64,000 nt of DNA from Salinirubellus salinus (GTDB taxonomy: Archaea; Halobacteriota; Halobacteria; Halobacteriales; Haloarculaceae). A program made the translations under genes and the position numbers. Below the pieces are notes generated by a model, which searched no databases, was not told the DNA's origin, and worked only from the letters and a program-made list of their open reading frames with translations. The stretch lies in contig NZ_CP104003.1 in NCBI RefSeq assembly GCF_025231485.1, forward strand, positions 1,984,001-2,048,000, in the 5' to 3' direction. This document shows, piece by piece, positions 7,298-64,000 of the stretch (positions are counted from its first letter, which is position 1; each line of letters begins with the position of its first letter).

Positions 7298-9049
7298 ATG
7301 CTCGACCCCCTGCTGCTGGTCCTCGTCGGGGTCGTCCTCTACACGGTCGGGGCGACGTTCCTGAAGATGCGAGGCCGTCTCCCCGAGTACATCAACGTCT
7401 CGGGGCCGATCACGACGCTGCACACGAAGCGCGGGCGGGTGTTGCTCGACAGACTCGCCCAGCCCAAGCGGTTCTGGCGCGCGTGGGGGAACTTCGGCAT
7501 CGGGGCGGCGCTCGTCGTCCTCGTCGGGTCGTTCCTCCTCGTCGCCCTCGCCGCCGTCCAGGCGATACAGAACCCCACGCCGACGGCGCTCAACGAACCG
7601 CGGAACGTGCTCGCCATCCCCGGCGTGAACCAGTTCCTGCCGCTCTCGGCGGCGTTCGAGATCCTGCTCGGCCTGCTGATCGGTCTCGTCGTCCACGAGG
7701 GCGGCCACGGCCTGATGTGCCGGGTCGAGGACATCGACATCGAGTCGATGGGGCTGGCACTGTTCGCGTTCATCCCGGTCGGGGCGTTCGTCGCGCCGGA
7801 CGAGGAGTCCCGGCGGCGGGCGTCGCGCGGCGGGCAGACCCGGATGTTCGCCGCGGGCGTGATGAACAACTTCGCCGTCGCAGTGGTCGCGTTCGCGCTC
7901 CTGTTCGGCCCGGTGATGGGGTCCATCGCCGTGGTCTCGGGTGCCCCCGTCGGCGGGGTGCTCCCCGGGTCACCAGCCGCGCAGAACGGCATCGAGCGCG
8001 GCGACGTGGTCACGGCCATCGACGGCGTGACCGTCGAGGACGCCGACAGCCTCGAGGCCGCGCTCGCCGCCACCGACGCCCGGACCGTCGACGTCACGCT
8101 GGAGAGCGGGGAGACCGTCGGCATCGAGCGGTCGGTCATCGTCACCGGGTCGGCATCCGACTCGCCGCTCGACGTGAACAGTACCGTCACCGCGGTCAAC
8201 GGCACCGGGGTGTTCACCGAGAGCGCCTTCCGCGAGGCACTCGCCGACCGCGAGGTGGCGACGCTCACCACCGCCGGGGAGACGGAGACTGTCACCACGC
8301 CCGTCGGGACGCTCACGACGCCCATCGAGGGCTCGGCGTTCGCGGCCGCCGGCGCCCCCGCCGGCGAGAGCGTCGTCGTCACCCACATCGGCGGGGAGCG
8401 CACGCTCGACCACGCCGCGCTCTCGACCGTGCTCGACGGGTTCGGCCCCGGCGACGAGGTCGAGGTCGTCGGCTACGTCGACGGCGAGCGCGAGACGTGG
8501 ACCGTCACCCTCGGCGAGCAGAACGACGAGGCGTTCCTCGGCGTCACGGTGGCACGCGGTGTCACCGGGATGACCGTCGACGACTTCGGCACGGACCCGT
8601 ACCCGGCCGCGCAGTTCCTCGGTATCCTCGGCGGGGGTGACGGCGGCGGCATCGACTCGCCGATCCAGCGCGCGGTGGTCACCCTGAGTCTCCCGTTCCT
8701 CTCGGCGACGGGCGGCGCGGGCTACAGTTTCGCGGGGTTCAACGGTGCCGTGGCGAACTTCTACACCGCCACCGGCCCCCTCTCGGTGCTCGGGACGGGC
8801 GCGGTGTTGCTGCTCGCGAACGTCCTCTACTGGATGGCGTGGATCAACCTCATCATCGGCCAGTTCAACTGCGTCCCCGCCTACCCGCTCGACGGTGGGC
8901 ACCTGTTGCGCACCTCGACGGAGGCCATCGTCTCCCGACTCCCGGTGCCCGACCCCCGCTCGGTGACCAGCGCGGTCACCACGACGGTGACGCTGGTGAT
9001 GCTCGGCGGGCTGTTCGTGGTCATCTTCGGGCCGCGGCTGCTGACCTGA
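7298..9049 (+). CDS. Site-2 protease (M50) with internal PDZ domains
   Basis: A 583-residue membrane protease. The zinc motif HEGGHG falls at about residue 132 and the downstream metal ligand in PAYPLDGGH at about residue 529. Between them is a PDZ domain at about residues 209-265 (VSGAPVGGVLPGSPA...GDVVTAIDG) and a second PDZ-like segment near 355-405. This is the archaeal S2P layout in which PDZ domains gate access to the intramembrane active site. The neighbouring lipoprotein is on the same strand 80 bases away, but nothing shows a functional link. Confidence 0.9.
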   Translation: MLDPLLLVLVGVVLYTVGATFLKMRGRLPEYINVSGPITTLHTKRGRVLLDRLAQPKRFWRAWGNFGIGAALVVLVGSFLLVALAAVQAIQNPTPTALNEPRNVLAIPGVNQFLPLSAAFEILLGLLIGLVVHEGGHGLMCRVEDIDIESMGLALFAFIPVGAFVAPDEESRRRASRGGQTRMFAAGVMNNFAVAVVAFALLFGPVMGSIAVVSGAPVGGVLPGSPAAQNGIERGDVVTAIDGVTVEDADSLEAALAATDARTVDVTLESGETVGIERSVIVTGSASDSPLDVNSTVTAVNGTGVFTESAFREALADREVATLTTAGETETVTTPVGTLTTPIEGSAFAAAGAPAGESVVVTHIGGERTLDHAALSTVLDGFGPGDEVEVVGYVDGERETWTVTLGEQNDEAFLGVTVARGVTGMTVDDFGTDPYPAAQFLGILGGGDGGGIDSPIQRAVVTLSLPFLSATGGAGYSFAGFNGAVANFYTATGPLSVLGTGAVLLLANVLYWMAWINLIIGQFNCVPAYPLDGGHLLRTSTEAIVSRLPVPDPRSVTSAVTTTVTLVMLGGLFVVIFGPRLLT

Positions 9050-18307: not shown

Positions 18308-19252
18308 ATGAGTGAATCCAAGCAGGAGACGGAGGCGCAACGAGAGGCGGCGGCCGAGTCCCAGACGGGGGGTGAGGCCACCAGCCAGCCGCTCACCACG
18401 GTGAGCGGCGAGACCGAAGAGCAGACGCGCGAGGAGTGGATCCAGTACGAGTTCGACGGCGAGGCGAAGATCGTCGCCGAGGACCTGGACGTCTACTACG
18501 GGGACGACCACGCGCTGAAGGGTGTCACGATGGAGATCCCCGAGAAGTCGGTCACGGCGCTCATCGGCCCGTCGGGCTGTGGGAAATCCACCTACCTCCG
18601 GTGTCTCAATCGGATGAACGACCGCATCAAGGTCGCCAGCATCGACGGGTCGGTCACGGTCGACGACCAGGAGATCTACCAAGACGGCGTCGACCTCGTC
18701 GAGCTCCGCAAGCGGGTCGGCATGGTGTTCCAGTCGCCGAACCCGTTCCCGAAGTCCATCCGCGACAACCTGCTCTACGGTCCCCGGAAGCACGGTGACC
18801 TCGATGCGGGGCTGCTCGCGCGGCTCACCGGTCGGGCCGACGAGAACGCGGAGGAGGAGCTGGTAGAGCGGACGCTGAAGCAGGCGGCCCTCTGGACCGA
18901 GGTGAACGACCGCCTCGACGACAACGCGCTCGGACTCTCTGGCGGCCAGCAACAGCGGCTCTGTATCGCTCGCTGTCTCTCGGTCGACCCCGATGTCATC
19001 CTGATGGACGAGCCGGCCTCGGCGCTCGACCCCATCGCCACGGCGAAGATCGAGGACCTCATCCACGAGCTCTCGAAAGAGTACACGGTCGTCATCGTCA
19101 CGCACAACATGCAGCAGGCCGCCCGCATCTCGGACCAGACCGCCGTGTTCCTCACGGGCGGTGAACTGGTGGAGTACGGTGACACCGACCAGATCTTCGA
19201 GAACCCGGAGAGCCAGCGCGTCGAGGACTACATCAGCGGGAAGTTCGGCTGA
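18308..19252 (+). CDS. pstB: Phosphate ABC transporter ATPase PstB (copy 2)
   Basis: A 314-residue ABC ATPase. Start ATG 18308 follows the pstA2 stop; a longer frame from 18206 would run inside pstA2 and is rejected. Walker A is GPSGCGKST, the signature LSGGQQQR, Walker [12 protein letters not shown] and the switch VTHNMQQA. The first ~55 residues are a Glu/Thr/Gln-rich acidic head. An insertion near [19 protein letters not shown] (after the Q-loop) is absent from copy 1. Confidence 0.94.
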
Positions 19253-56470: not shown

Positions 56471-57880
56471 TCAAGCGGCCTGCGAGAGCGCCTCGACGAC
56501 GTCATCGAGCGTGAAGAGCTGGAGGTCGTCACGACTGGCAGCTGCCTCCTCGATAGATGGCTTGAATCCACTCCGGCTGAACAGGGCGTACTCGTACTCC
56601 GGGTCGCCACCGTCTGACGGTGTCCAGTCGATGTGGGGAGCGTCGTCCTCCAGGCCAGCCAGGACGCCATACCCGAGCGGGCTGTTCGTGAACTTCGCTT
56701 CGCCCACCAGCAGCGTCGCGCCACTGGTCGGGGCGACGACGTCGACCTCCCGGTCCTTGTGCCACCACTGACCGGGCACCCGGAGAAGCTGCAGATCAGT
56801 GTACAGCGTCGGTACCGCCTCGTGACAGAGACGTTCGAACGTGTTGCTGACGAACGCCGGCAGCTCCGGCTCGATGAGGTCCGCGTACGCACCATCGCCG
56901 TAGAGTTCGTACTGACCTGCTCTGCCGTAGAGATATTTGAAGTAGAAGCGAAAGAGCGGGTCGCGGACCCGATAGCGCGTCGTCTTCGTTCGCGTCGGAT
57001 CTGCCGTCACTGGATGGTAGCGTTCGATGAGGCCGAGCGTCTCCAAGCGGTCGAAGTAATAGGACGTATCGCGGCTGTCGATTCCGGCCCCCTGGGCAAT
57101 CTCGTTGCGCGTTCGGTTGCCGCTCGCCATCGATTCCAGCAACGCGAAGAAGCGGTTGACCTCGGTGAGTTCCATCTGGAGTACCGTCTCGGGCTCGTCG
57201 TGCAGTGGGCCGTCGGCATCCAGCAAGAGGCGCTCGATGTTCTCGCCGAGAGTGAGCGAGCTGTCGAGCGGGGTGAGATACCGCGGGGTTCCCCCGAAGA
57301 CACCGGCGACGAACACCAGTTCCTCGTTCGAATACCCGGGAACGAACTCCCGGAGCGAACGGAAGGGAAGCTCCTGGAGTTCGATCCTTCCGTTCGGTGT
57401 CTGCGAGACACGGCCGTACAGCGGTGCGCCACCGTCGAGGACGTGTTCGTGGATCATGCCGATTGCAGACCCCGTCAGGACGAGTGTCGCCCCACTCTCG
57501 TCGACCTCGTGGTCCCAGAGTCGCTGAATGATCGACGGGAGGCTCGCGTCCTGATCGATGAGGTAGGGAAACTCGTCGATGGCGACGACCGCGTCCTGAT
57601 CGATGAGGTACCGGAGGAGTGGCTCCCACGCCTGGCGAATATCGGTAATCCCCGGATACACCGATTTGGCGGCCTCGATGAATCGGGTGAGCTGGACTGG
57701 TGGTGTCTCCTGCACTGCCTGATAATAGACGGCGCCCTCGCGGTCTTTGAGCGATTCGAGGACGAGGCTGCTCTTGCCGATCTGCCGACGACCGTACACG
57801 ACTGCGAGTGCTGCCTGATCGCTCTCGTACAACGCTCGCAACCGGTGGAGTTCGTCCTCACGGTTGACGAACTGCTCCAT
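56471..57880 (-). CDS. AAA+ ATPase of the ATPase_2/DUF234 family
   Basis: A 469-residue protein. Residues 1-235 are a STAND/AAA-type ATPase (FVNREDELHRL, Walker A YGRRQIGKSS, Walker B VVAIDEFPYL, sensor LVLTGSAIGMI). A winged helix follows (EIAQGAGIDSRDTSYYFDRLETLGLIER), then a C-terminal DUF234-type domain with D...GEAKF (VDVVAPTSGATLLVGEAKF), a PD-(D/E)XK-like core. The family is widespread in archaea with an unknown role, often linked to mobile DNA. YLIDQD occurs twice about 20 residues apart. A perfect palindrome lies upstream at 57923. Confidence 0.88.
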   Translation of the reverse strand: MEQFVNREDELHRLRALYESDQAALAVVYGRRQIGKSSLVLESLKDREGAVYYQAVQETPPVQLTRFIEAAKSVYPGITDIRQAWEPLLRYLIDQDAVVAIDEFPYLIDQDASLPSIIQRLWDHEVDESGATLVLTGSAIGMIHEHVLDGGAPLYGRVSQTPNGRIELQELPFRSLREFVPGYSNEELVFVAGVFGGTPRYLTPLDSSLTLGENIERLLLDADGPLHDEPETVLQMELTEVNRFFALLESMASGNRTRNEIAQGAGIDSRDTSYYFDRLETLGLIERYHPVTADPTRTKTTRYRVRDPLFRFYFKYLYGRAGQYELYGDGAYADLIEPELPAFVSNTFERLCHEAVPTLYTDLQLLRVPGQWWHKDREVDVVAPTSGATLLVGEAKFTNSPLGYGVLAGLEDDAPHIDWTPSDGGDPEYEYALFSRSGFKPSIEEAAASRDDLQLFTLDDVVEALSQAA

Positions 57881-58912: not shown

Positions 58913-58967
58913 GGGTCGGCAGCTCCGGTAGCACTTCGGCGTCGTGGGTCCCGCCGGCCCGAGCTAC

Positions 58968-59537
58968 CTGATTCAAGGAGAGAGTCCCGGCCTTCAGGCC
59001 GGGCGTGAATCTGACCGCTTCCGACACGTACCACGTGTTTATGCTGGCCGGGGTCGTTTCTCCGGTAACTCAACGCGGAAACGTGGAGGTGGTTTGGCGT
59101 TCCTCCCGTCGGCGTGGTCGATACCACACCTTCGACCGGACTCACGTCCACCGACGCACCCGCCGAACGGTGGGCATCAACAACGCGAGCCTGCCGGGGT
59201 TGAGCGTCATCACCGTGGCAGAGAGGTGACGCAGGTCGATGGCACGACCCGTGCCCGGACGCCTCGAAAGAGTCGTTCGGGAGCATCCCCCAACTCCCTC
59301 GTGGGCGGCGGGGATGCACGGTGCAAGGAGATACCGCGTCCGTCTGGACGCCGAATACGCCACATCCCTCGCGGGACTCACGTATCGCGCACAAACCGAG
59401 ACACCCCGCTCACGCGGGTGGATTTGCCCCCGTCGGACGAACCGGAGTCCCACGCACCGTTTTCGGTGGTGCGATGGCCAGCCCGACCCCGAGCGCGGAT
59501 GGGGAACCCTCGCCGTTTACCCCGAGGAGGATGTCAT
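58968..59537 (+). mobile_element. 570-bp non-autonomous IS200/IS605-type element (PATE-like), copy 2
   Basis: Same length as copy 1 and nearly identical over the interior (about 59035-59500), inverted relative to it. The left end is CTGATTCAAGGAGAGAGTC after flank CTAC (58964-58967), and the right end is GAGGAGGATGTCAT. The left-end hairpin is CCCGGCC-TTCA-GGCCGGG (58986-59003). It differs from copy 1 at two base pairs, both compensated. The right-end hairpin is imperfect here. No transposase or credible gene lies inside. Confidence 0.85.
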
Positions 59538-62500
59538 TCCGCCATCCGGTCGCGGATCCACGTCAGCGGATAGATGCCCGTGAACCCTGGCTGGTCGATG
59601 CGGAACTGCTGGAGCGGCGTCGCCTCTGCATAGGTCTGGGTGACGCGTGGCTCGCCATCGAGGGGGTCGTTGAGCGCTCGGAGGAGCTTGTGTCCGTCCG
59701 ATTGGGTCATCGTGATCCAGATGGCCTCCTCGGGCTCACACGCGGCGATCTTGTCGTAGTCCGCTGGCGCGGCCGCGGCGAGGTCGTTGTTGATGCGCTC
59801 GACCTCGATAGCGACGACGACCTCACCCTCGCGATCGAGTCCGACGATGTCGAGGCGGTCGGCGTTCCCCGAGGGCTCGTCCGCATCGTGGTTCACCTCG
59901 TAGTAGGGAACGACCTCGACGACAGGTGAGTCGGCGTCGTCCAGGTAGTGCGTCTCGAGATATCGCCGCCCGGCTTCGACGCCGAGGGTGTGTTGACTCG
60001 ACTCGCCGAGGTCGCCCGTGCCGTGGCCAAAGGCGATACCGCGGCGATGCCCCTCGTTCAACAGGGCTCGGCCCTCGCTCGTCACCGTGTACAGGCGGTG
60101 GGGGTGGTCACCACCGTGGCTGAGCACCCCGGCGTCGAGGAGTTCGTCGACGGCTTCGGACTCGATACCGACGTACTCCTGGAGCCGGAGCATACTGTCG
60201 AAGACGAGGTCGAACTCGGGGGCCTGATAGCGGCCCTGCTGGGCGTTGTAGACCGCTTGCAGGAACATGAGCTGGGCATCGGTGTAGCCGGTGTCGTGGC
60301 GTTCGTTCGCGCTGAGCTTGAGCGTCAACTCGGTGATGGGGACGTCGTCTGGATTCGTCGACCCATTGGGGTGGCACTCGAGCGCGCGACGCATCCCCTC
60401 GGGGCCGGGGTCGTACGTCGCCTCGCAGTGCTCGCAGACGATGGCGTGGCGCTCAGCGTCGTAGCGAAGCCCGCTCGGAAAGCGCGTGGTGTACGGGAGC
60501 GGGGTATCGACCCGTGGCCGGCGAGCGTCGTCGTCACGCGGGTCGGCGGGGTCGGTCGGCTCTCCGTCGGCGGTGTAGCGCTGCGTCGTACTGATGGGGA
60601 TGCCGGCCTCCTGCACGGTGCGGTGGCGGCATCGGGCAGCGGCGGCCTCGTACAATACCTGCTCGGTTCGGTCGAGTGACTCGTCGCTCGCGGGGTGCCC
60701 ACGCGGCGGGCTGGGCGAGGCGAGCAGGCAGGGTTGTGGTGGCGTCCCACCGAACGGTGCGGGCAGACTCGCGAGCCACTGGCCGGGGCGGAGCCCACGC
60801 ATCCGGGCAGCCATCGCCGTGTCGTCGATCTCGTCGGTCGCGAGGCGTTCGGCCAACTGTGGGTCGTAGCGGACCGGGCCGGCGAGGATGGTGCCGACGT
60901 CGTTCAGCACCTCGTCATAGGCCCGCTGGGAGGCCGCCTGCAGCTGGCGGGGGAACTGCATCGCGAGCGTGATCGAGAGGCCGAAACTCCGCGATTGCGA
61001 GAGAAGCTCACTGAGTAGCCCCGTATCGGCGACCGTGGCCGCCTCTTCGATGTAGCAGTTGACGAGCGGTCGGTCGTCGTCGTCATCATCGCGGGCGGCC
61101 CGTCGCCTGAGCGCCGCCCACAACTGCGAGAGGACGACCAGCGTGACCGCCCGTTGTGCGTCGTCGCGTAGCCCACCCGTGTCGATGATGATCGTCGCTC
61201 GCTCGTTCAACAGCGCGTCGAGGTCGAAGTGGGGAGTCGCTCCCTCGGTCTCAGCCTCAGCATCGGAGGCTGGGGCGACGTAGCCGAACAGGCGGGCGAG
61301 TCGGCGGTCGGCCGGTACCTTCTCGATGCGGGTGAGGACACCCTGCATGATGGCCTGGAAGGTATCGCCGTTGGCTTCGACGACGCCCGCCAGCAGGTCG
61401 GCGAGTTCGTCGTCGACGACGGGCGGCGGGGCCTGCCGGGAACGGAGTCGGCGGGCGGCCTGTTGCAACGCGGCGTGTGAGAAGGCGTCCGAGCCGTTGA
61501 CCGGGTCGAACAGCGCCTTCAGCAGGTAGGTGATGACGTCGGGGCTGCGTTTGGCCTCCCCGTAGCTGTCGGCGCCCATCAGCCCCTTGACGATCTCGAC
61601 GTAGTGGGTGATACGGTCGTCGACCGCGGTCTCGCGGGGGATGCCTGCCTTCAGGTCGGCTCGGATGTCGAAAAAGCCCATCGCGGGGAGCACTCGACTG
61701 CAGTCGAAGTAGTAGACGTCGTTGAGATTTCCGTAGCGAGCGTAGTGTGCCTGCAGGAGCTCACTGGCCATGCCATCACCCTTCGGGAGAAGGGAGATAT
61801 CGGCGCCGTCGGTCGCGGCGCGATTGTCGATCATAGCTCGATCGAAGAGTGTGGACTTCCCGACGCCGGTCGGGCCGAAGATAGCCATGTGTAACGACTG
61901 CAGTTCTGGTGGAAGCGCGAGCAGGTCGCCCGCCTCGTCGTTGTGATCGAGGAGGTGCCCAAGCGTGAAGCCCGTGGTCCGGTAGCGCCGAACCTGCTCG
62001 GTCGAGAGGGGCTGGTGGGCGCGTTGCTCGGCCGGCGTCGGTGCCAACGCCCGCCGGGCGGGCTCGGGGAGCGTCGCGCCGCTACAGAGCGTGAACAGCG
62101 AGAGGGTGGTCGGGTCGGTGACGATGCAGGCCGACCGATTCTGCGTCCACGGGAGCTTCGTCATGAAGCGGTCGTGGTCCGGCGCGGCATGTTCTCGATT
62201 ACGGAGTGCACTCCACGCCCGCTCCGAGTCGACGTCCTTGCCTTCGAGGTGGTAGTGCTCGCCGCCGGCGTGCTCGAACGCACTCCGCAGGGCACTGGTG
62301 AGCGCGTCGAGTGACCCATCGCCGATCGAGACGCTCTCAGACGCGACAGCTTCCTCCCTGTCGGCGTCGTCGTCGAGATGAGTGGTGGGTCGCACTTCGC
62401 CTTCGGCGGCCGTGGCGGCCCCGTCAGTGGCCGCTGGTGGGACGACCTGCGACGTGTGCTGGTCGAAGTCTGGTTTGCAGACGACCGCTCTGGCCGTGAC

Positions 62501-63511
62501 GGCGAAGGCGTGGGTCGCGTCTTTCGTCTCGAGGTCGGCCAGCCGCGACTCGGTGAACCGTGAGTAGTTGCGCTCATCCGCGTCGAGGTGCCGTGTCGTA
62601 CCGGTGTCGTACTCACGCCGGTACACGCTGTCGCTGTATCCTGCATCTTTGTGCTGGCGACGCTCGTACGAGCGCTTTGCCTCGCGCATCGCCTTGCGCT
62701 CGGATGGAGTCCCGAAGATAAACGCGGCGAGCTTCCCACCCCACGTCTCGACGCCCTCTTTCAGGTCGTACTCGCGGAGTTCGACCGCCCACGTGTAGTC
62801 CTCGAACGGCTCGACGAGTGCCTGGTAGACGGCCGGATACGGTGACTCAGCTAACAGCGACGCGACGTCGGCGAGCGGCGGTGCCGTCGAGTCCCGGTGC
62901 TCCGGGTTCTCGAACGCATCGTAAGGCGTGAGCCGCGTCTGCCAGTCCTGACGACGCTCGCCACGACCCTGCCACTGAATCGCTCGGACCGGGGTCGGGT
63001 CGGCAGCCCCGGCCGTGTCCTCGGGCTGGTCGCTACCCCCTCCGTTTCCGGTGGAGCGACATGACAATCCTTCTGTAGCTGAGCGTTCGGTCCGGGTGAT
63101 TTCGTAGCCTGCGGGAAACAGTTGGCCGGCGAGTCGCTCGATCGTGTCGAGTTGGCTCACCGGCTCGCACCCGAGGTAGTACTCGAGCGTCGGTTCCGGG
63201 CCACCCGGTGCGACGAGGAGCACCTCGAGGCGGACGGGCGTGGTCTCATCGAGGCCCAGCGCACCACGCAGCGTGGTCGTCTCGAACAGCGCGTCCCGGA
63301 TGCCCGAGGCGCCGGAGTTCGTCACCTCGACTGCCCGGTGAAGCCGCTCGAGTTGACCGACGAGCGTCTTCGGCTCGAGTGGGGTATCGGTCGGGCGGAC
63401 GTGGAGATACGGCCTGGTGTCGCTCGATGTCGCGTCGTGGGCGTTCGACGCGTTCTCGCCGTCGAGGCGGGCGTCAGCTTGACTCGAGCCCCCCGACTCG
63501 TGGTCAATCAC
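59534..63511 (-). CDS. HerA/VirB4-like transfer ATPase with zinc motif, winged helix and C-terminal PD-(D/E)XK-like domain
   Basis: A 1,325-residue protein starting at GTG 63509-63511. Residues ~40-480 are a non-ATPase region (LEVLLVAPGGPEPTLEYYLG) typical of plasmid transfer ATPases. Walker A GPTGVGKSTL is at ~544 and Walker B NCYIEEAATV at ~819, followed by LSQSRSFGLSITLAMQFPRQL. A Cys/His motif (CEHCEATYD...ECH) lies near 1023 and a winged helix near 1065-1130. The end domain has RLDIVGL (about 1219) and AIEVERIN (about 1236), a PD-(D/E)XK-like Asp...Glu-X-Glu pattern. It is probably a DNA pump with nuclease. The stop TGA lies in the mobile element's edge. Confidence 0.82.
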   Translation of the reverse strand: MIDHESGGSSQADARLDGENASNAHDATSSDTRPYLHVRPTDTPLEPKTLVGQLERLHRAVEVTNSGASGIRDALFETTTLRGALGLDETTPVRLEVLLVAPGGPEPTLEYYLGCEPVSQLDTIERLAGQLFPAGYEITRTERSATEGLSCRSTGNGGGSDQPEDTAGAADPTPVRAIQWQGRGERRQDWQTRLTPYDAFENPEHRDSTAPPLADVASLLAESPYPAVYQALVEPFEDYTWAVELREYDLKEGVETWGGKLAAFIFGTPSERKAMREAKRSYERRQHKDAGYSDSVYRREYDTGTTRHLDADERNYSRFTESRLADLETKDATHAFAVTARAVVCKPDFDQHTSQVVPPAATDGAATAAEGEVRPTTHLDDDADREEAVASESVSIGDGSLDALTSALRSAFEHAGGEHYHLEGKDVDSERAWSALRNREHAAPDHDRFMTKLPWTQNRSACIVTDPTTLSLFTLCSGATLPEPARRALAPTPAEQRAHQPLSTEQVRRYRTTGFTLGHLLDHNDEAGDLLALPPELQSLHMAIFGPTGVGKSTLFDRAMIDNRAATDGADISLLPKGDGMASELLQAHYARYGNLNDVYYFDCSRVLPAMGFFDIRADLKAGIPRETAVDDRITHYVEIVKGLMGADSYGEAKRSPDVITYLLKALFDPVNGSDAFSHAALQQAARRLRSRQAPPPVVDDELADLLAGVVEANGDTFQAIMQGVLTRIEKVPADRRLARLFGYVAPASDAEAETEGATPHFDLDALLNERATIIIDTGGLRDDAQRAVTLVVLSQLWAALRRRAARDDDDDDRPLVNCYIEEAATVADTGLLSELLSQSRSFGLSITLAMQFPRQLQAASQRAYDEVLNDVGTILAGPVRYDPQLAERLATDEIDDTAMAARMRGLRPGQWLASLPAPFGGTPPQPCLLASPSPPRGHPASDESLDRTEQVLYEAAAARCRHRTVQEAGIPISTTQRYTADGEPTDPADPRDDDARRPRVDTPLPYTTRFPSGLRYDAERHAIVCEHCEATYDPGPEGMRRALECHPNGSTNPDDVPITELTLKLSANERHDTGYTDAQLMFLQAVYNAQQGRYQAPEFDLVFDSMLRLQEYVGIESEAVDELLDAGVLSHGGDHPHRLYTVTSEGRALLNEGHRRGIAFGHGTGDLGESSQHTLGVEAGRRYLETHYLDDADSPVVEVVPYYEVNHDADEPSGNADRLDIVGLDREGEVVVAIEVERINNDLAAAAPADYDKIAACEPEEAIWITMTQSDGHKLLRALNDPLDGEPRVTQTYAEATPLQQFRIDQPGFTGIYPLTWIRDRMAE

Positions 63512-64000
63512 CGGCTTCCCGCGCTGATTGCGCGATAGATTCGGCGTGGCCGACGGCGACTCTCGATATGCGGATTATCGTGGGGGATTCCCATCACCCG
63601 CCGCTTCGCTACTTCTCCGCATATATGCATCTGCTGTCACAGTGGAACATATAGTGGAACGAGAACGAAATCTCCACGCGAGATGACGTGTCACGGGACG
63701 AGGCGAGGGTGAGAACGGCTCGAAAGCCCCCGGGCGCTGGGCTCCCGCGGCTCGCTGCGCGCCTCGCAGGCTCGGTGCTTGCGTCGCCGGGGTTCGCCCA
63801 GCCCCCGGCCCCTTTCAGTCCCACCCGGTTGCTTGTGTAGGGGAGCGTCGTCTCGTGGACGGCTGGTGTATGCTCGACGTGCGCCCTGCTCGCCAGCCCG
63901 GTCGCCTGCGGGGAGTTCGTGCCTCCCCGGCACGCCAGCATTATGCGCGGTTTCGGTCGGCTCGCCGACCGCCGCTCGCCGACGCGAGAACCGGCATAAA
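63512..64000. other. Gene-free right end with promoter, direct repeat and a low-complexity conserved element
   Basis: Bases 63512-63660 are the AT-richer promoter area of the ATPase-nuclease gene. They include GTGGAAC twice, eight bases apart start to end (around 63643-63661). From about 63715 to 63850 the sequence reads, on the minus strand, GGTGGGACTGAAAGGGGC, then a stretch rich in CCGGGGGC and GCGCAGCGAG. I recall it as a dispersed haloarchaeal non-coding sequence. The short ORFs over it look spurious. No tRNA or CRISPR unit was found. Confidence 0.45.

What the first reader, a model, noticed from the sequence alone, without database searches (positions are those of the whole stretch)
59534..63511. 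Very large ATPase fused to a zinc motif, winged helix and nuclease-like domain
The protein combines a transfer/packaging-type ATPase (Walker A ~544, Walker B ~819) with a C-terminal region that has a DNA-binding winged helix and the Asp...Glu-X-Glu of PD-(D/E)XK enzymes. An ATP-driven DNA pump and a nuclease in one chain could serve conjugation, plasmid maintenance or defence. No relaxase, pilus gene or restriction partner is visible in this window.
Basis: partly seen in the sequence, partly recalled or inferred. Interest (0 to 1): 0.65.

Follow-up and report, generated by a model that had tools for sequence, protein, structure and literature searches.

The report
Coupling ATPase fused to nuclease-like domain
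A salt-loving archaeon carries two intact orphan copies of a DNA-pumping motor, related to the motors of DNA-transfer (conjugation) machines, with a DNA-binding and nuclease-like end attached; in other haloarchaea the same gene sits in integrated conjugation-like elements that have no recognised DNA-nicking enzyme, so this extra end is a testable candidate for that missing part.

Summary
Window 59534-63511(-) encodes an intact 1325-aa protein with Walker A/B, a Cys zinc motif, a winged-helix-like segment and a C-terminal D...E-x-E block whose key residues are invariant in 36 relatives. The ATPase belongs to the TrwB/VirD4 (type IV coupling protein, FtsK-HerA) family. About half of the chromosomal relatives have VirB4 within 110 kb, nearly always upstream and divergent; six of six regions read in full hold the same genes: coupling ATPase, OB-fold protein, TFB, TrbL, VirB4. 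The same C-terminal domain ends the coupling ATPase of VirB4/TrbL plasmids, including Halobacterium salinarum PHS3. MOB-suite types all 142 matching plasmids non-mobilizable. The window copy and its 79% paralogue are orphans on a chromosome without VirB4, yet under purifying selection. A covarying ~125-nt hairpin lies 5' of both copies, but it is a dispersed repeat in most related genomes. Best explanation: a haloarchaeal coupling ATPase with a built-in DNA-recognition/processing domain, left behind by, or acting in trans with, a conjugative element. Nuclease fold and activity are unproven: Pfam and PDB searches are silent and AlphaFold models were poor. New variant of a known kind, interest about 0.5.

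The parts
59534..63511 (-). Gene for the 1325-aa coupling-type ATPase with C-terminal nuclease-like domain
   Evidence: ORF and alignment with 35 relatives
60557..62014 (-). ATPase core, about residues 500-985, TrwB/VirD4-HerA type
   Evidence: TrwB_AAD_bind 31/36, TraG-D_C 20/36, DUF87 23/36 members; TrwB 1e9r E=5.6e-6
61853..61876 (-). Walker A, GPTGVGKS, residues 546-553
   Evidence: invariant G549, G551, K552 in 36 relatives
61043..61063 (-). Walker B, VNCYIEE, residues 817-823
   Evidence: E823 invariant, E822 nearly invariant
60374..60436 (-). Cys motif C1026-x2-C1029...C1046, zinc-binding type
   Evidence: three invariant Cys
60062..60316 (-). winged-helix-like segment, about residues 1066-1150
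   Evidence: conserved segment; weak MarR-like PDB match E=0.23; dN/dS 0.11
59537..60028 (-). nuclease-like domain, residues 1162-1325: E1170, H1174, R1219-x-D1221, E1236-x-E1238, D1243, D1251, D1253
   Evidence: all invariant in 36 relatives; profile match to the C-terminus of T4SS-linked plasmid coupling ATPases, 99.9%, E=5e-34
63711..63835 (-). d1: structured ~125-nt hairpin 5' of the gene, same strand
   Evidence: covariance model E=1.8e-20; only two matches in the genome, one 5' of each paralogue
63932..64000 (.). start of d2, conserved noncoding block with inverted repeats, running past the window end up to a divergent OB-fold gene (L007:8191-9036)
   Evidence: 530-bp block 83% identical between the two paralogous loci; OB-fold Pfam match
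58961..59538 (.). 578-bp IS200/IS605-like mobile fragment abutting the 3' end of the gene; reaches into the last codons and the stop
   Evidence: 84.6% copy at G000:C1:2791196-2791774; sequences

Best explanation
[quoted passage not shown] Proposed working: the winged-helix/zinc part recognises the element's DNA, possibly in the noncoding region between this gene and the divergent OB-fold gene; the nuclease-like domain makes the cut or nick that starts transfer, or trims the DNA; the ATPase pumps the DNA towards the VirB4/TrbL channel. The window copy and its paralogue have no channel genes nearby, so they are either left-over parts of such elements that keep a role, or act in trans with the T4SS genes of the resident 249-kb contig. 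SHOWN: coupling-ATPase family, invariant motifs, VirB4/TrbL synteny of relatives, C-terminal domain shared with plasmid coupling ATPases, purifying selection, orphan state. INFERRED: nuclease fold and activity, the site recognised, direction of pumping, use of the plasmid channel in trans.
For: Family: TrwB_AAD_bind in 31/36 and TraG-D_C in 20/36 relatives; TrwB 1e9r is the top PDB profile match, 5.6e-6. Synteny: 26 of 53 copies bearing the C-terminal domain have VirB4 within 110 kb on the same contig, 24 of them upstream and 22 upstream and divergent; all six regions read in full carry coupling ATPase, OB, TFB, TrbL, c6 and VirB4, five of six in the same orientation. Shared domain: hhalign 99.9%, E=5e-34, with the C-termini of VirB4/TrbL-linked plasmid coupling ATPases; H. 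salinarum PHS3 OE_RS12100, directly after a VirB4 gene on a plasmid typed MPF_T, has it at E=3e-38. No relaxase recognised: 142/142 plasmids typed non-mobilizable, in line with the statement that archaeal conjugative plasmids lack recognisable relaxases (PMC9905601). Conservation: D1221, E1236, E1238 invariant; dN/dS 0.11-0.20 in the C-terminal parts. The domain occurs mostly fused to the ATPase (ORFs of about 1150-1450 aa) and, among 295 genomes of the phylum, only in the window's own order.
Against: No fold support: no Pfam match to the C-terminus, no significant PDB profile match, AlphaFold pLDDT 38 and 43, meaningless Foldseek matches. The third catalytic position is Glu, not Lys. About half of the copies have no VirB4 found nearby, partly because contigs are short. 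The window copy has no VirB4 on its chromosome and no integrase within 150 kb. No transmembrane helix, unlike VirD4/TrwB. No transfer has been shown for any of these elements here.
Confidence: 0.6

Rival explanations
1. The C-terminal domain is a catalytically dead nuclease fold, or another domain, used only to bind DNA or a partner; the protein is an ordinary coupling ATPase with a specificity tail, and strand cutting is done by another protein.
For: E-x-E instead of E-x-K; fold not confirmed. Many bacterial coupling proteins carry specificity tails (general knowledge).
Against: D1221, E1236, E1238 and also R1219, D1243, D1251, D1253 are invariant in 36 relatives down to 35% identity, more than a binding surface usually needs; the best-matching plasmid coupling ATPases keep the D and the E-x-E.
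Confidence: 0.3
2. The orphan works in defence (HerA-nuclease type, compare MADS8): it pumps along and degrades foreign DNA.
For: PADLOC mad8 match 9e-13 over the ATPase; candidate defence ATPase PDC-S27 1.65 kb downstream; an HNH/type IV restriction-like gene lies about 5 kb from the paralogue.
Against: The mad8 match covers only the ATPase shared by this whole superfamily; no other MADS gene matched among the neighbours tested; relatives sit with VirB4, TrbL and TFB.
Confidence: 0.15
3. The ATPase packages element DNA into plasmid vesicles, as proposed for pR1SE ORF25, rather than driving conjugation.
For: pR1SE ORF25 is described as a VirB4/TrwB/HerA-like ATPase thought to recruit the plasmid into vesicles (PMC10818511).
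Against: Relatives lie in elements with TrbL and VirB4; kinship with ORF25 could not be tested because the record is not held.
Confidence: 0.08
4. The two copies are decaying remnants with no present function.
For: No VirB4 on the chromosome, no nearby integrase; a mobile fragment has replaced the last codons; C-terminal fragments elsewhere in the genome.
Against: Both ORFs are intact at 79% identity; dN/dS 0.25 overall, 0.11-0.20 in the C-terminal parts. This selection may predate the orphan state.
Confidence: 0.15

Closest known systems
Type IV coupling proteins TrwB / VirD4 / TraG-TraD
   Same: ATPase core with Walker motifs, Pfam TrwB_AAD_bind and TraG-D_C, synteny with VirB4 and TrbL in relatives
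   Different: No transmembrane helix; ~500-residue N-terminal region; C-terminal zinc, winged-helix and nuclease-like domains; orphan here
Coupling ATPases of haloarchaeal plasmids (Halobacterium salinarum PHS3 OE_RS12100 type)
   Same: Same ATPase and same winged-helix/nuclease-like C-terminus (E=3e-38)
   Different: About 30% identity over the rest; directly beside VirB4 and a primase; the Cys motif is not kept in the aligned plasmid members
HerA-NurA
   Same: Works like: ATP-driven DNA pump plus nuclease; proposed to feed archaeal conjugation (PMC9905601)
   Different: Two separate proteins in HerA-NurA, one chain here; NurA kinship not tested
Fusexin-bearing integrated mobile elements of haloarchaea (PMC9259645)
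   Same: Integrated elements with VirB4, HerA and TraG/TraD/VirD4 family genes
   Different: No fusexin candidate noticed in the six regions scanned by eye; kinship of the exact proteins not tested
MADS8 (mad8) defence ATPase
   Same: PADLOC profile match over the ATPase (9e-13)
   Different: No other MADS gene matched among the neighbours tested
Streptomyces TraB with its clt site
   Same: Works like: DNA pump with a C-terminal winged helix that could recognise a nearby noncoding site without a relaxase (general knowledge)
   Different: TraB has no nuclease-like domain; recognition of d1/d2 is untested here

Membership tests
Type IV coupling protein (VirD4/TrwB) | TrwB/TraG-type nucleotide-binding domain | tested here: met
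   31/36 and 20/36 relatives match; the window protein itself only below threshold
Type IV coupling protein (VirD4/TrwB) | encoded with a T4SS (VirB4, VirB6/TrbL) | tested here: inconclusive
   met for relatives: 26/53 within 110 kb, 6/6 regions read in full; not met for the window copy itself, VirB4 only on the second contig
Type IV coupling protein (VirD4/TrwB) | N-terminal transmembrane anchor (usual, not universal) | tested here: not met
   no hydrophobic segment in the window protein or nearly all relatives; so 'coupling-type ATPase' is claimed, not a canonical VirD4
PD-(D/E)XK nuclease | conserved D...(D/E)-x-K active site | tested here: inconclusive
   D...E-x-E, invariant in 36 relatives; the Lys position is Glu
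PD-(D/E)XK nuclease | alpha-beta-beta-beta-alpha-beta core fold | tested here: inconclusive
   the AlphaFold model shows that order of elements but at pLDDT 43; Foldseek gives no match
Replic_Relax (PF13814) | significant match to the profile | tested here: not met
   no match in the window protein or own genome
Bacterial relaxases (MOB families) | recognised relaxase domain | tested here: not met
   no Pfam relaxase match; 142/142 related plasmids typed non-mobilizable
MADS defence system | mad1-mad7 partner genes beside mad8 | tested here: not met
   PADLOC on ten neighbouring proteins of both copies shows none
Integrative conjugative element (window copy) | integrase and T4SS around the gene | tested here: not met
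   no integrase within 150 kb, no VirB4 on the chromosome, no tRNA near; boundaries not resolved for relatives

The most novel reading that the evidence does not exclude
The C-terminal zinc/winged-helix/D...E-x-E module is the functional stand-in for the missing relaxase of haloarchaeal conjugation: one polypeptide recognises a structured noncoding site next to its own gene, cuts it, and pumps the DNA through a VirB4/TrbL channel.
Probability: 0.2. Interest if true: 0.85.

Novelty: new variant of a known kind. Interest (0 to 1): 0.5.

Why it matters
How archaeal conjugative elements prepare DNA for transfer is open: no recognisable relaxase has been found in them (PMC9905601). A conserved nuclease-like module on the coupling ATPase, in both integrated elements and plasmids of the model organism Halobacterium salinarum, gives a specific candidate and point mutations to test. 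It also suggests that plasmids typed 'non-mobilizable' may carry transfer machinery.

Tried and rejected
Inversion or shufflon at the gene's 3' end, suggested by a flank found 21 kb from the paralogue: explained by copies of one IS200/IS605-like fragment. d1 as a site unique to this gene: true in this genome but it is a dispersed, often paired repeat in 80 of 96 related genomes; the association with the gene remains strong (15/44 against 9/561 other genes), with the caveat that the model was built from copies near the gene. Integron-like cassettes bounded by d1: repeated d1 copies around cargo in a few loci, not pursued, and the dispersal weakens the idea. Kinship with Replic_Relax: not detected. 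Kinship with the other plasmid subgroup's C-terminus (PDAR...IEVETTT): not significant. Viral origin: no relative in IMG/VR or phage records. Only one genome contigs relative was found, so the genome search was used instead. pR1SE record not held.

Full report
WHAT IS THERE. The window lies at 1984001-2048000 of a 4.13-Mb chromosome in a 4.38-Mb, two-contig genome. Close relatives of the gene are all haloarchaeal. The ORF at 59534-63511(-) is 1325 aa. A second intact copy, 79% identical, is at 2813277-2817236(+).

CONSERVATION. In an alignment of 36 relatives from many genera, G549, G551, K552, E823, C1026, C1029, C1046, E1170, H1174, R1219, D1221, E1236, E1238, D1243, D1251 and D1253 are invariant. 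The motif is always E-x-E. From general knowledge BamHI is an active PD-(D/E)XK enzyme with E-x-E; I could not find this in the paper library, so it is a lead only. Between the two copies in this genome dN/dS is 0.25 overall, and 0.13, 0.11 and 0.20 in the zinc, winged-helix and nuclease-like parts. Both copies have therefore been kept as proteins, at least until recently.

FAMILY. The window protein alone gives only weak library matches. As a family the assignment is clear: 31 of 36 relatives match TrwB_AAD_bind and 20 match TraG-D_C, and the top solved structure is TrwB. It has no transmembrane helix. The C-terminal ~330 residues match nothing in Pfam and nothing significant in the PDB.

SURROUNDINGS IN RELATIVES. 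In 96 genomes of the taxonomic family, 60 have a relative. One class keeps the window protein's C-terminus and is mostly chromosomal; another is on plasmids or integrated elements directly beside VirB4 and TrbL. Searching the same genomes with a VirB4 profile shows that the chromosomal class is also linked to VirB4, only further away: 26 of 53 copies within 110 kb, 24 upstream (13-104 kb) and 22 upstream and divergent (both coordinate lists were copied by hand). In six regions read in full the gene set is the same: coupling ATPase, then divergently an OB-fold protein, TFB, conserved membrane proteins, TrbL, c6 and VirB4; in one of the six (G027) the VirB4 operon is turned round. An NrS-1-type primase-polymerase (PF22763) lies nearby in some.

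SHARED DOMAIN. The window C-terminus is homologous to that of VirB4/TrbL-linked plasmid coupling ATPases (hhalign 99.9%, E=5e-34; alignment), including OE_RS12100 of Halobacterium salinarum plasmid PHS3, which follows a VirB4 gene and whose plasmid is typed MPF_T yet non-mobilizable. All 142 plasmid records with a match are typed non-mobilizable. A second plasmid subgroup ends in a different domain that also shows PD...E-x-E but is not detectably related. The domain was found in 25 of 295 genomes of the phylum, all of the same order, most hits in ORFs of about 1150-1450 aa.

THE WINDOW COPY. Both chromosomal copies are orphans: VirB4 occurs only on the 249-kb second contig, which also carries a 1724-aa ORF with the same ATPase and C-terminal domain. 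No integrase lies within 150 kb of either copy. Downstream of the window copy is an IS200/IS605-like fragment that reaches into the last codons, then a DUF234 ATPase.

NONCODING ELEMENT. Upstream, a 530-bp block is 83% identical between the two copies, more than the genes themselves. Its first part, d1, is a long hairpin; in 19 aligned copies 17 of 26 pairs show changes on both sides and none of 500 shuffles reaches the observed covariation. In this genome it has exactly two matches, one 5' of each copy, and nothing in Rfam matches it at E<=1 in the two loci scanned. Elsewhere it is dispersed, up to at least 34 copies per genome and often in inverted pairs. It is thus REP-like, yet enriched 5' of this gene: 15 of 44 against 9 of 561 other genes (the model was seeded from copies near the gene, so the figure is biased upward). 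Whether it is a transfer site, a regulator or a passenger is open.

MECHANISM. The best reading is a coupling ATPase that brings its own DNA-recognition and probably DNA-cutting module to a conjugation-like machine that otherwise lacks a recognised relaxase. The literature states that no recognisable relaxase is found in archaeal conjugative plasmids and suggests HerA-NurA as a source of single strands (PMC9905601); this protein would be a one-chain version of that idea. Integrated haloarchaeal elements with VirB4, HerA and TraG/VirD4 genes are known from the fusexin work (PMC9259645), so the element class is not new. What I did not find described is the conserved C-terminal module and its sharing between plasmids and integrated elements, with the limit that only open-licence papers were searched.

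LIMITS. The nuclease fold is unproven. Transfer has not been shown. Roughly half the relatives have no VirB4 found nearby, and the window copy has none on its chromosome.

Noticed in passing
window 63711-63835(-); L009:12969-13094; A ~125-nt covarying hairpin with nearly invariant ends (GGGACTGAAAGGGG ... GGGGGCTTTC) and an unpaired GGG/GGG internal loop is a dispersed, often inverted-paired repeat in 80 of 96 haloarchaeal genomes, without an Rfam match in the two loci scanned.
   Followed up: partly
L007:8191-9036 and L009:11527-12678: The same conserved upstream block leads into an OB-fold gene at one locus and a TFB gene at the other, and the block runs into the first codons of both (MSSRYTIG... 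and MSSSNTIG...).
   Followed up: no
L044 (3994, 5643, 7554), L046, L059, L070, L097: Several copies of d1 in direct orientation bracket cargo genes (PIN/VapC-like toxins, HTH proteins) upstream of the coupling ATPase, cassette-like.
   Followed up: partly
window 58961-59538; L011:11196-11774; L007:12147-12516: IS200/IS605-like mobile fragment; the copy at L007:12155-12303 matches Rfam sot0042 (E=7.7e-15), the one abutting the gene changes its last codons and stop.
   Followed up: partly
window 56471-57880(-): DUF234 archaeal ATPase, PADLOC candidate defence PDC-S27 (2e-40); members of the same cluster lie near the coupling ATPase in L042, L044 and L078.
   Followed up: partly
L083-L088, L090, L091: A second plasmid subgroup of coupling ATPases ends in a different PD...E-x-E domain (PDAR...IEVETTT), a possible independent nuclease-like fusion.
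   Followed up: partly
G000:C2 (L082, and VirB4 at 18812 and 212071): The 249-kb second contig carries a coupling ATPase in a 1724-aa ORF and VirB4 genes, so it may be a conjugative plasmid.
   Followed up: no
L009:4361-7660 and 7734-8459: Near the paralogue: a 1099-aa PDDEXK_1 protein and an HNH protein with a type IV restriction-like match, hinting at a defence island.
   Followed up: no
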